A stretch of 64,000 nt of DNA from Rhodothalassiaceae bacterium (GTDB taxonomy: Bacteria; Pseudomonadota; Alphaproteobacteria; Sphingomonadales; Rhodothalassiaceae). A program made the position numbers and the translations under genes. Positions 20,372-33,880 of this stretch are shown piece after piece. Within the stretch, counting starts at the first letter, position 1. The number at the start of each line of letters is the position of its first letter. The notes below the pieces were generated by a model that did not search any database, was not told where the DNA came from, and saw only the letters and a list, made by a program, of their open reading frames with translations. Location: contig BPKC01000001.1 in assembly GCA_026004935.1 (NCBI GenBank), positions 1-64,000 on the forward strand. Reading direction: 5' to 3'.

Positions 20372-21175
20372 CTACCTCTTCAGGCTGTCGAGACGCCGGT
20401 AGATCGCCCGGCAATGATCGCCCGGTTCGATCGCCCAGCTGCGATCGGCGCAGCGTCTGGCCTCATCGAGCAATTCTCGATCGCCGGTTTGCTCAAAGCG
20501 ATCCATGAGCAGGGCCGCGCGCTGAATCAGCAGGACCCGACGCTCGCCATCCGTGAGCTCGCTGCCCCTGGCAAGCACCTGCTCGGTTCGCTTCAGCGCT
20601 TCGATGGTGCGGCCGGAGTGGCGCAAATGACGGATCAGAGGGATCAGCAGGTCAGGCAGGCATGATCCCGGGGCGGCATCGATCCAGGCGCTCAGCGGCT
20701 TGATCACGTTGTACGGCTGCCCGTATTTTTCGGCGAGGCCGATGTAGCGCGCGCGTTCATGGTCCGGTGGAACGCGCCCCTGTCTTGCGCTGCACACCGC
20801 GGCGTACAGATCGTCGAGATCGCGCTCGTCCACTCTTCTGACAAAGCCATAGGCGGCAATTGCGCGCCGTTTGTCCTGCGCCGCGCGCAGCTCCGGCGTG
20901 ATGGCCGCATCGAGTGCGCGGCGCAGCGCCCGAGAGACGAGCACGCAGCCGGCCGCGAGTGCGACGTTTCTGCTGGTGCCGCCGGGCATGCTTACGGAGA
21001 GCCGCCCGGCGTTGGCGTCGCAGTGCCGGATGGTCCAGAGGCAATCGGGATCGTCGCGATAGAACCGGCAGCCGACCAGCGCGGCTGCGACCGCCGCGCC
21101 GTGCGGGCCGCGCAGGAGGGGAAGAATGTCCTCTCCCGGGATATCGTCCGCGTCATCGTCGGCAGGCTGCGTCAT
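20372..21175 (-). CDS. Hypothetical protein, last gene of the defence operon
   Basis: A 267-residue protein I do not recognise. It has an acidic N-terminus (DDDADDIPGEDILPLLRGPH). The C-terminal half (about 130-265) is helical, with a tetratricopeptide-like rhythm (SLIR-type helices such as LLIPLIRHLRHSGRTIEALK and LLDEARRCADRSWAIEPGDH). No catalytic motif, signal peptide or membrane segment is seen. Its ATG (21173-21175) overlaps the stop of the methylase gene in an ATGA arrangement, so it is probably translated by coupling and belongs to the same operon. A partner or scaffold role in the defence complex is a positional inference. Confidence 0.75.
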   Translation of the reverse strand: MTQPADDDADDIPGEDILPLLRGPHGAAVAAALVGCRFYRDDPDCLWTIRHCDANAGRLSVSMPGGTSRNVALAAGCVLVSRALRRALDAAITPELRAAQDKRRAIAAYGFVRRVDERDLDDLYAAVCSARQGRVPPDHERARYIGLAEKYGQPYNVIKPLSAWIDAAPGSCLPDLLIPLIRHLRHSGRTIEALKRTEQVLARGSELTDGERRVLLIQRAALLMDRFEQTGDRELLDEARRCADRSWAIEPGDHCRAIYRRLDSLKR

Positions 21176-24100
21176 TGATGGCCCTCCGTTCGCGGCCGCA
21201 TGCCCCGGGCGGTCAACTCGTCATAGGCGGCGAGGACGAGGCGGCGGGTGCGGTATTCGCCGAACGCCTTGATCTCGTTGTTCTTCAGCACGCGGAAGGT
21301 CTCGGAGGGATAGTCCGCGCCGTAGACGTCCGCCGGATCGAGGATGTAGCGCAGCTCGTCGCGGGTGAGCCCATAGAGATGGGCGTAATAGGCGTCGAGC
21401 TCGGCGCGCAAGAGCGCGCGGCGGTCCGGGTCCCACGGGAAGGGCGGGCCGTTAAACCCAAGATCGCGCGCAAACGGCGCCATGGAATAGCTTGTGTAGG
21501 TGAGCTCGAGGACGCGGGGGACGATGAAGGCGAGATCGGCCGGGCGGTAAATGGAAGGCGGTAAAGCAATCAACTGTTTCATGGTAAAGTACTTGAGCGA
21601 GGTGCCCCCGACCTTCTGGCGAGCTACGAAGTCAAACGTTAATGAGTTCATGCATCCAAGGAGTGCTGCCACCAGTTCGGCGTTCAAACTGGACATCATC
21701 AGCAGAAACTTGTCGCCCACCCCCACCCGCGGAAACGCCGCGGCGATCACGGTCCGCTCGTTCGTCGCGTTCGTGATATCCCGCCAGCCCATGAGCCAGC
21801 CGCGGGTCCAGCCCTTGGCGGAAAGGCGTTCTTCCACCTCGCGCTCGGGCACCCAGTAGCGGGGCAAGGGCAGAAAAGCGGGATCGCACTTTTCGTCATC
21901 GCCCACATCGCGCGAGCTTTCCCCCTCCGGCTCGTAAGAAGCCCAGCGATGATCGAACTGGTGGATCATCTTGGCTTCGTAGAGCGGCACCCAGACGGCG
22001 CCCGAGGGCTCGACCCAGCCCGCGCCCTCGCGCCGCGCCCCCGCCTCCTCGAGCTGCCGCCAGGTGCGGAAAAGATGGCTGTCGTTGGACATGTGGAACA
22101 TTGCCATGAACGACACGCCCCAGGGATTGCCGTCCCCGCCCTTGGCTTCATCGATCAGCACCGGCACGCGGGCGTAGATCTTCCGGGTGAGCTCAGCATC
22201 GGCCTGGCTGCGGAACACGGGCGCGGTGCTTGCGTGTTGGGGTTGATGCGGCGGATGTCGTCGGGCGAAAGGGTGAAGCGGCGGCGCGGGTCGCGCAGCT
22301 GCTCCACGTTCGTCGCGAAGAACGCGAATTCGGCCTCGGGTATACTGGCGCCCAGGGTCAGCAGACAGAACTTGTAACTGCGGTGGACCGCCGGGAAGAT
22401 CGCCTCGCGGTTTTCGAAATCATAAAGGCTCGCCAGCCGCCCCCTGGTCGAGACCTCCTCGAAGAAGGCCCTGGTGGAATTGTCCGTCGCGATCCCCGTC
22501 GGCACGATCAGGCCGGCGCGCCCGAGGGGGGCGATGAGGTTCAGGAAGGTTTCGGCGAAAACTGCATAGGTGTTGACGTCGCCGGTGCCGGTGAGCGGAA
22601 AGCGCCCGGAGGTACGCACGAACTGGCTCGCGGCCTCGGCCTCGTGCCTGGCCTGTTCGAAGGCTTTGAGGAGCGCCTTTTCCGCCGGCGCGGCGTCAGG
22701 GCGACCGAGGGCCTTGATCAGCCGCTCGCGCGCGGCCTTGTTGGGCGCCTTGGCGATCTCAGGCGCGCGGGAGGCGAAGAACTCCTGCTCCTGAAGCTTG
22801 ATCCGCTCCCACGGCGGGTTGCCCAGCACGACGTCGAAGCCGCCCTTGGCGAAAACTTCAGGAAACTCCACCGGCCAGTGGAAGAACCGGGCTTCCTGCG
22901 CGATCCGGTCGGTCTCGGCGATGAGCGGCCCATAGAGGGTGACGCCGTCGAGATACTGCCAGAGCTGGCCGGAGGTCGGAACCAGCTCGCGCCCGCGTTG
23001 CGGGATGTCGGTCTTGGGGGCGAAGAAGGCCGCGCACCAGAGATCGCAGGCGATCTTCATCTTCCACCCGAGACCCCCCGACCTCAGGCTCTCGAAGGCG
23101 CGGCGCTTGGCCGCGATGTCGGCGAGGCTCTCTTCGGGCATGGCGTCGAGCGCTTCGAGCGCCCTGGCGAGGTCGCGCGGGTCCTGGGCGAAATCGAAGC
23201 CGCTCGCGATCCGCTCGCGCTCGGCCCGTTCGCGCCGGTTCTTCGCCCTGTAATGGCCGGCGGCCTCCTTGGAATCACCGGTGAGCGGCTTGTAGGCCGC
23301 ATCCGGGATCCCTTCGCGCAGCACCTTGAGATCGAACACGCCGACAAGGGAATCGCCGCAGCGGATGTGGGAATCGAGAAAGGTGAGCGGCTTGCCGGGT
23401 TCGACGGTCTCGATCCAGAGCGCGGTGCGGCAGAGTTCCACGGCGAGGGGATTGCGGTCGACCCCAAAGATGCAGTGCTGAACCACCTCGCGCAGCGCGT
23501 GCTGGCGCGCCTGCTCGTCGGGGGTGTCGGTGCCGGCCTCCAGGCGCGCGATCTCGGCCGCCATGCGGCGCGCTGCCGCCAGCAGGAAATGACCCGAGCC
23601 GCAGGCCGGGTCGATGATTTTGAGATCGAGGAGAGCCGCGCGCGGGTTTTCCGGCCGCGCTTTGATCGCCTCGGCCATGACCGGCTCCAACGCGGAGGCG
23701 ATGAGCTCGTTCACGAGCGCGGCGGGGGTGTAGTAGGAGCCGGTGAGCTTGCGCTCTGAGCCCCTGGTCTTCTCGCCATTGACCTCTCCGACGAAGCCGA
23801 AGGTCCAGGGCTTGGCTTCGACGTCGACGACGGGGTGGAGCTCGAGCAGGCTCTCATAGACCGATCCCAGCTCCTCGGTGCCCATGTCGCGGTAGTTGAC
23901 GCGGGCGAGCCCCGAAGACGTCCGGAAGAAGGTCAGGCTGCGGATCGCTTCCAGCAGCCGCTCATTGGTGATGCTGAGCGCCTCGAGAGTTCGGCACTGA
24001 TCCGGGGCGAACAGCCCGCCGAGTGCGGGAAGGCCCAATGCCGGCGCTCCATGGGCGAGAGCGCGGAAGACGATCCGCAGACCCTGCCAGAGGTCGTCAT

Positions 24101-33303: not shown

Positions 33304-33880
33304 GGCCTCCATCCACGTGAAAGTTCGACGATGTGCTCTTGCCCATATGTTTATGAGGTCTTGTCTGCCTGTGGCCACGCGTCATAGAAATGACTCGATT
33401 CTTCAGCACGCACATCTTTGAACCGACCACCCGGTAATCGCGAATCGGGTAGCGACGGTATTCGGGGTGGTCCGGGACGGCGTAGGTCATGTGACCATCC
33501 ACGATGGATCCGTTCCAGGCGGCCACGACCGTCTTGTTCCGGGACAATCCCTGAAGCAGACGCAAAGGATCCTGCTTCAGGTGGACATCGAAAAGGATCT
33601 CGATGTTGTCGAGCAGAACCAGCTCGCCTGTGGCTTCACGCACGATTTCGCCCAAGAGCCGTGTTAGCTGCAGAGCCCGTTGGCGTTCGGTCAGGTCCAG
33701 CATCCGGCGAGACAGCTCGAGATTGACGTTGACGAGCGGTGCGGAGGTCGAGGCCGACACCTCCTGCAACGCGGACGTCTTCCCGCTTCCCGCCGGGCCC
33801 ACCATCAGGATCAGGCGGTGAAAGAGCTCGCGAGCCTCGCCGATCTTTCGCAGGACCTGATCCGCCAAGGGCTCCGCCAT
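33290..33880 (-). CDS. brxF: BREX-3-type P-loop protein BrxF
   Basis: A 196-residue small ATPase. The P-loop is LMVGPAGSGKTSALQEVSA (about residues 25-43). NLELSRRMLDLTERQRALQ, VLLDNIEILFDVHLKQDP and LQGLSRNKTVVAAWNGSIVD match BrxF, a hallmark of BREX type 3. The family core ends near residue 150 (PEYRRYPIRDYRVV). The last 45 residues are basic and of unusual composition and run 14 bp into the next gene, as if the normal stop had been lost. It is the first gene of the leftward operon. Its usual partners BrxC and PglZ are absent from the window. Confidence 0.85.
   Translation of the reverse strand: MAEPLADQVLRKIGEARELFHRLILMVGPAGSGKTSALQEVSASTSAPLVNVNLELSRRMLDLTERQRALQLTRLLGEIVREATGELVLLDNIEILFDVHLKQDPLRLLQGLSRNKTVVAAWNGSIVDGHMTYAVPDHPEYRRYPIRDYRVVGSKMCVLKNRVISMTRGHRQTRPHKHMGKSTSSNFHVDGGHERL

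What the first reader, a model, noticed from the sequence alone, without database searches (positions are those of the whole stretch)
20372..33880. Defence operon intermediate between BREX-3 and DISARM
BrxF is a BREX-3 hallmark, yet BrxC, PglZ and BrxA are absent. The other genes (DUF1998 helicase, DrmD/BrxHII-like SNF2 helicase, DrmMI/PglXI-like methylase) recall DISARM class 1, but DrmC and a separate DrmB are missing and an unknown 267-residue protein is coupled at the end. The five genes overlap or nearly touch and form one leftward operon. It may be a distinct minimal system.
Basis: partly seen in the sequence, partly recalled or inferred. Interest (0 to 1): 0.78.

Follow-up and report, generated by a model that had tools for sequence, protein, structure and literature searches.

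The report
ARMADA defence operon with stray brxF
This is a bacterial anti-virus gene cluster of a recently described kind (ARMADA Type I), joined at its front end to a leftover gene from a different defence system, so it is not a new class of system.

Summary
The genes are real, but the interpretation changes. Read leftward: brxF, a YprA-family DUF1998 helicase ending in a Vsr/DUF559 nuclease domain, a BrxHII/DrmD-like helicase, a PglX/DrmMI-like methylase, and a 267-aa protein. The three middle genes are ARMADA Type I (Bell et al. 2025 preprint, PMC12458937). The same order occurs in 21 of 24 relatives examined, and a YprA tree puts the window inside the ARMADA I clade (support 100), away from ARMADA II and Druantia III.

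brxF is not part of this system. Its DNA is 97.8% identical to brxF of a BREX-3 locus, loses its last ~10 codons at an abrupt junction, and runs on as a 48-residue foreign tail into the YprA start. No BrxF precedes YprA in 23 of 23 relatives with upstream sequence, including one whose YprA is 86% identical; no YprA follows BrxF in 80 of 80 BrxF loci. A gutted BREX-3 relic sits elsewhere in this genome. The 267-aa protein is not conserved with the system. The methylase is split by a frame break.

The cluster sits beside a tRNA-Leu integrase. Verdict: new member of a known kind, with a BREX-3/ARMADA junction; activity untested.

The parts
33290..33880 (-). brxF-derived ORF, 196 aa: codons 1-148 are BREX-3 BrxF with P-loop intact; residues 149-196 (the tail after RYPIRD) match no BrxF and overlap the YprA start by 14 bases
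33427..33883 (-). stretch 97.8% identical in DNA to brxF of BREX-3 locus L043; similarity ends abruptly at 33427
33884..33963 (-). leader of brxF; with the first ~15 codons it is 69% similar to the leader and start of a gutted BREX-3 relic at 2.715 Mb of the same genome (18-mer leader found at only these two places)
28027..33303 (-). YprA-family helicase (ARMADA Type I; DruE-like): DEAD, Helicase_C, MZB/DUF1998 and C-terminal DUF559/Vsr-type nuclease; 1758 aa
25145..28114 (-). BrxHII/DrmD/DpdE-like SNF2 (RapA-type) helicase; longest ORF 989 aa, start probably ATG 28009 (954 aa)
22155..25148 (-). PglX/DrmMI-like N6-adenine methylase, N-terminal catalytic part (SAM motif and NPPW, read by eye), 997 aa, ends out of frame
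21172..22218 (-). C-terminal (target-recognition) part of the same methylase in another frame, 348 aa
20372..21175 (-). 267-aa protein, ATG overlaps the methylase stop; C-terminal helical TPR-like region; not conserved with ARMADA
18595..19890 (+). tyrosine integrase (Arm-DNA-bind_3 + Phage_integrase) beside the tRNA gene
18350..18437 (+). tRNA-Leu (CAG), probable attachment site of the element
37375..37392 (+). imperfect copy (15/18) of the tRNA-Leu 3' end: candidate far boundary of an element of about 19 kb
   Evidence: mean 0.06 matches in shuffles

Best explanation
The locus is an ARMADA Type I anti-phage operon carried on an element that probably integrated at a tRNA-Leu gene. By analogy with ARMADA Type II and DISARM, the PglX-like enzyme would mark host DNA with N6-methyladenine, and unmodified incoming phage DNA would be engaged by the RapA-type BrxHII-like helicase and the YprA helicase. 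The YprA protein would translocate on it, and its C-terminal Vsr-like nuclease would damage it (all inferred). The leading brxF is the 5' end of a BREX-3 operon (leader plus about 148 codons) left in front of ARMADA, most simply by a deletion or recombination that removed brxC to brxA; it is probably a passenger or at most a borrowed leader. In this assembly the methylase is split between catalytic and target-recognition parts. The copy is therefore either a two-subunit methylase, a damaged copy, or carries an assembly indel.
For: Core order YprA - BrxHII-like - PglX-like in 21 of 24 YprA relatives; the other three are cut by contig ends (L035, L041) or hold only a YprA fragment (L042). Same order in named plasmids of Roseomonas mucosa, Nocardioides, Rhodococcus, Deinococcus, Sphingomonas and others. 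YprA tree: window inside ARMADA I, support 100; ARMADA II and Druantia III separate. Walker A/B, motif VI, MZB cysteines and the DUF559 D..IDGPHH motif are kept. brxF: 97.8% DNA identity to BREX-3 L043, ending abruptly at 33427, while BREX-3 loci resemble each other on into brxC; natural BrxF ends FLVASPEVTT or similar at about 158 aa. 0 of 80 BrxF loci hold YprA; 71 of 80 have BrxC downstream, 7 have under 600 bp of room, 2 lack it. A BrxF profile finds nothing in 22 ARMADA I loci with at least 1 kb upstream, and finds BrxF in 5 of 5 control loci. L179 (YprA 86% identical) has no BrxF in 10 kb upstream and its DNA similarity stops at the YprA start. Gutted BREX-3 relic in the same genome.
Against: brxF still has an intact P-loop and heads the operon, so a role cannot be excluded. 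The window-side changes in brxF are few (three amino-acid changes against L043 in codons 1-148), too few to show decay. No phage test exists for any ARMADA Type I that I saw; the tested system is Type II. The 5' edge of the captured stretch is unsure: L043 similarity stops at the ATG, but relic similarity runs 80 bp further. No genome was found with BREX-3 directly in front of ARMADA, the presumed ancestor. The nuclease motif is not seen in several ARMADA I relatives.
Confidence: 0.87

Rival explanations
1. A new five-gene system in which BrxF has been recruited as a working regulator or loader of the ARMADA helicases, with the 267-aa TPR-like protein as a further subunit.
For: Genes overlap or nearly touch in one operon; BrxF keeps its P-loop; BrxF is called the counterpart of BrxB, a STAND/ORC-Cdc6-type P-loop protein, in BREX-3 (PMC12839542 passages).
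Against: Combination seen nowhere else: 0 of 80 BrxF loci, 0 of 22 + 1 ARMADA loci with upstream sequence. BrxF lost its C-terminus to a foreign tail. The only clear homologue of the 267-aa protein lies away from any ARMADA gene.
Confidence: 0.07
2. Deletion derivative of a tandem BREX-3 + ARMADA I island: brxF is what is left of a BREX-3 operon that stood directly upstream. This is one specific history inside the best explanation, not an alternative to it.
For: brxF with leader, same direction, abrupt 3' junction; another internally deleted BREX-3 remnant in the same genome (brxF start joined to PglXI C-terminus, BrxHII fragment downstream).
Against: No intact tandem ancestor found; in the 80 BrxF loci at most 10 kb downstream was held, too short to see a gene after a complete BREX-3 operon. 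Insertion of a brxF fragment by recombination is not excluded.
Confidence: 0.55
3. The brxF/ARMADA junction or the methylase frame break is an assembly error.
For: A TonB receptor about 7 kb away is also frame-broken at about 14800, so indel errors are plausible.
Against: The junction lies inside a 2.9-Mb contig of an assembly rated 100% complete; only one BrxF match exists in the genome, so the junction is not a collapsed repeat of a second copy.
Confidence: 0.1

Closest known systems
ARMADA Type I (Bell et al. 2025, PMC12458937)
   Same: YprA-family helicase first, then BrxHII-like helicase, then PglX-like methylase; Vsr-type nuclease at the YprA C-terminus; YprA clade
   Different: brxF fragment and leader fused in front, 267-aa gene coupled behind, methylase split by a frame break
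ARMADA Type II (same preprint)
   Same: shares the three families
   Different: order is BrxHII, PglX, YprA plus ArmD; YprA about 2100 aa in the five loci I assign to it; window YprA is in another clade and no ArmD-like gene was seen
BREX type 3
   Same: BrxF, and distant similarity of the SNF2 helicase to BrxHII (about 30%)
   Different: no BrxC or PglZ; BrxF truncated; methylase is of DrmMI/type-IIG kind
DISARM class 1
   Same: DrmD-like helicase (NF038317 346 bits, below its 610-bit cut-off) and DrmMI-like methylase
   Different: no DrmA/DrmB pair and no DrmC; helicase is DruE/ARMADA-like with fused MZB domain
Druantia type III (DruE)
   Same: YprA helicase of the same broad branch (PADLOC DruE best match)
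   Different: no DruH seen; separate clade in the tree; different nuclease

Membership tests
ARMADA Type I | YprA-family helicase of the ARMADA I clade | tested here: met
   tree of 32 YprA proteins, support 100, quick method; my ARMADA I/II labels rest on gene order, not on the preprint's reference sequences
ARMADA Type I | order YprA - BrxHII-like - PglX-like | tested here: met
ARMADA Type I | C-terminal predicted-active Vsr-type nuclease on YprA | tested here: met
   DUF559 9.7e-05, above the Pfam cut-off; motif aligned
ARMADA Type I | BrxA-like insertion after RecA1 of YprA | not tested
   no structure of YprA was predicted
ARMADA Type I | methylase in one piece (usual state of relatives, not a stated definition) | tested here: not met
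   split in two frames; this bears on function, not on descent
ARMADA Type I | anti-phage activity | not testable with these tools
   needs phage challenge
BREX type 3 | BrxC and PglZ present | tested here: not met
   no match in the window; PglZ absent from the genome
BREX type 3 | BrxF | tested here: inconclusive
   profile match strong but 3' end replaced
DISARM class 1 | DrmA and separate DrmB, DrmC | tested here: not met
   helicase best matches DruE, MZB domain fused, no PLD nuclease among the scanned proteins
Druantia III | DruE clade with DruH | tested here: not met
   tree; no DruH among the listed matches of the proteins scanned

The most novel reading that the evidence does not exclude
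BrxF has been captured with its leader as a working component of an ARMADA operon: the BREX-3 P-loop protein, freed from BrxC and PglZ and with a new tail, loads or gates the ARMADA helicases, while the methylase works as two separate subunits.
Probability: 0.06. Interest if true: 0.6.

Novelty: new member of a known kind. Interest (0 to 1): 0.3.

Why it matters
It shows how defence systems can look like hybrids when recombination joins the front of one operon to another. It warns against naming a system by one marker gene: BrxF alone would label this BREX-3. It gives one clear junction for studying defence-island turnover, and the split methylases found in relatives make a simple, testable question about ARMADA I.

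Tried and rejected
New five-gene system: rejected as main reading because neither brxF nor the 267-aa gene travels with the core. BrxF in viral contigs: no relative. The 267-aa protein: no viral-contig relative; one clear homologue, 38%, on a Novosphingobium plasmid, before a TonB receptor-like ORF; of 289 class genomes only the window's own and one weak match with two stops inside. Structure of the 267-aa protein without an alignment: mean pLDDT 54, only the C-terminal ~80 residues reliable, so no fold search was made. Upstream stretch 33200-38300 in plasmids: no match; 33300-38300 in 40 related genomes: only the own genome. Programmed frameshift in the methylase: I saw no slippery run at the junction by eye; not tested further. 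Exact attachment repeat: the 25-base tRNA end occurs once in the genome; only an imperfect 18-base copy at 37375 was found. Rows set aside: in the upstream BrxF count, L030 (500 bp upstream) and L037 (YprA 5' end missing) were not counted, and L042 (a YprA fragment) was; L023/L029 (one genome split over two contigs) were left out; 73 of 80 BrxF sequences entered the conservation count. Of 284 BrxF relatives found in genome contigs only the best 80 were kept by the tool, and of 71 plasmid YprA records 11 were opened.
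Full report
What is there. On the minus strand between 33880 and 20372 lie, in order of reading, a BrxF ORF (196 aa), a DUF1998/MZB helicase with DEAD and Helicase_C domains and a C-terminal DUF559 domain, an SNF2 helicase, a methylase in two frames, and a 267-aa protein. PADLOC names the helicase DruE-like, the SNF2 protein DpdE/DrmD/BrxHII-like and the methylase DrmMI-like. NCBIfam gives DrmD at 346 bits, below its 610-bit cut-off. Beside them stands a tyrosine integrase directly after a tRNA-Leu gene, with an imperfect copy (15 of 18) of the tRNA end at 37375; shuffles give 0.06 matches on average, so this far boundary is suggestive only.

The core is ARMADA Type I. 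A 2025 preprint (PMC12458937) defines ARMADA as YprA-family helicase + BrxHII-like helicase + PglX-like methylase, Type I generally having YprA first and a Vsr-type nuclease at the YprA C-terminus. I searched 398 genomes of the phylum with the window's helicase: 14 match at E <= 1e-50, the window's own included. Together with plasmid records (71 with a match; 11 opened) I examined 24 relatives. YprA - BrxHII-like - PglX-like is present in this order in 21 of 24; L035 and L041 end after the second gene, and L042 holds only a YprA fragment. In a tree of 32 YprA proteins the window lies within the ARMADA I set (support 100), away from five loci with the Type II order and three Druantia III loci. 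These type labels rest on gene order and PADLOC, not on the preprint's own reference sequences. Walker A, Walker B, motif VI, the MZB cysteines and the nuclease motif D..IDGPHH are kept in the window. In the same alignment the nuclease motif is not seen in several ARMADA I relatives (for example L038-L040, L127, L134, L136-L138).

brxF is a foreign front end. The DNA from 33427 to 33883 is 97.8% identical to brxF of L043, 95.6% to L044 and 90-91% to L045 and L046. L043 shows brxF followed by what reads as a brxC start, and these BREX-3 loci resemble each other beyond brxF into brxC. In the window the likeness stops after ...RYPIRD (residue 148): other BrxF proteins end FLVASPEVTT or similar at about 158 residues, whereas the window runs on for 48 residues of other sequence and overlaps the YprA start by 14 bases. 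Of 80 BrxF loci, none has a YprA match. In 71 of 80 a BrxC-like gene follows, 7 have under 600 bases of room, and 2 lack it: L063 has PglXI and PglZ downstream, L053 an AbiU-like gene. A BrxF profile built from these loci finds nothing convincing in the 24 ARMADA I loci (best E 0.12), 22 of which have at least 1 kb upstream, and finds BrxF in all 5 control loci. The strongest single case is L179, a phage-like contig whose YprA is 86% identical: its DNA likeness ends at the YprA start and no BrxF lies in the 10 kb before it.

Where brxF came from. The 80 bases before brxF and its first ~15 codons are 69% similar to a place at 2,715,448 of the same genome. There a brxF-like start is joined to the last ~125 residues of a PglXI methylase (PADLOC 2.9e-36), with a BrxHII fragment of about 50 residues downstream and a tRNA-Thr nearby. 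An 18-base leader occurs at only these two places in the genome. So this genome holds a gutted BREX-3 operon, and the window's brxF with its leader is best read as the front of another BREX-3 operon. Whether a deletion in a BREX-3 + ARMADA tandem or an insertion made the junction is not shown. PglZ is absent from the genome; BrxA was not found, but no control rang. Against L043 the window brxF shows its own amino-acid changes at codons 20, 73 and 81 (the tyrosine at 20 is kept in 72 of 73 BrxF) and very few silent changes: too few to prove decay.

The methylase break. Catalytic part and C-terminal part lie in different frames; the GC phase flips at about 22200. Of 21 relatives with a methylase, 14 carry both parts in one ORF; L030, L032 and L033 carry a natural split with a DUF2281 + PIN (toxin-antitoxin-like) pair between the parts; L131 and L134 are otherwise broken; L037 and L127 are cut by contig ends. 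The three natural splits form one clade, so they may be one event. They show that the join between catalytic and target-recognition parts can be interrupted, but the window's break is 24-30 residues away from theirs and has no insert. A TonB receptor at 12272-15400 is also frame-broken, so assembly indels remain possible.

The 267-aa protein. It starts in the methylase stop (overlap of 4 bases). Its one clear homologue (38%) lies on a Novosphingobium plasmid in front of a TonB receptor-like ORF, with no ARMADA gene in 16 kb on either side. The predicted model is reliable only in the C-terminal helical, TPR-like part; 'TPR-like' is my reading of the helix pattern, no fold search was made.

How it most likely works (inferred). 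As in ARMADA II and DISARM, self DNA would be marked by the PglX-like methylase, and the RapA-type and YprA helicases would act on unmarked phage DNA with the Vsr-like domain as nuclease. The preprint shows direct, non-abortive protection for Type II only, with all four genes needed. A 2026 review lists ARMADA among systems that restrict by unknown mechanisms (PMC12904381 passages). Nothing here shows that this copy is active.

Literature check. Searches for ARMADA/YprA/DISARM/Druantia, ARMADA/YprA/BrxF and BrxF/DUF1998/DISARM/DrmD listed no paper in which BrxF occurs together with ARMADA or YprA (for BrxF alone). In the BREX survey PMC12839542, ARMADA, YprA and DUF1998 do not occur and BrxF is called the BrxB counterpart in type 3. 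Supplementary tables were not read, so the brxF-ARMADA junction may be listed there.

Verdict. An ordinary ARMADA Type I operon as to core, unusual in its BREX-3 front end. New member of a known kind, interest 0.3.

Noticed in passing
L030, L032, L033 (between methylase halves): ARMADA I methylase split at the catalytic/target-recognition boundary by a DUF2281 + PIN toxin-antitoxin-like pair in three related loci
   Followed up: partly
L033 11436-13122; L034 6399-8070; L037 2991-4409: A HipA_C-domain gene and a HIRAN-domain gene lie together between the BrxHII-like helicase and the methylase (PADLOC candidate families PDC-M03A/B in L034)
   Followed up: partly
L128 22728-23362: Phd/VapC pair between BrxHII-like helicase and methylase in Acidithiobacillus caldus ARMADA I (record annotation)
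   Followed up: no
own genome, L180 9449-12895 (about 2.7154-2.7189 Mb): Gutted BREX-3 remnant beside tRNA-Thr: brxF start joined to PglXI C-terminus, BrxHII fragment downstream
   Followed up: partly
window 38323-55433: Type III CRISPR-Cas locus (Cas10/Csm1, RAMPs, Cas6, Csx1-like CARF-HEPN) with two arrays of the same repeat in opposite orientation at 40075-41387 and 53830-55433
   Followed up: no
window 12272-15400: TonB-dependent receptor broken by a frame change at about 14800
   Followed up: partly
L179 342-9335: Phage tail and baseplate genes (Rcc01698-like, BR0599-like) directly before an ARMADA I YprA gene on an IMG/VR contig
   Followed up: no
L053 133-2642: BrxF followed by an AbiU-like gene and not by BrxC: another orphan BrxF
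   Followed up: no
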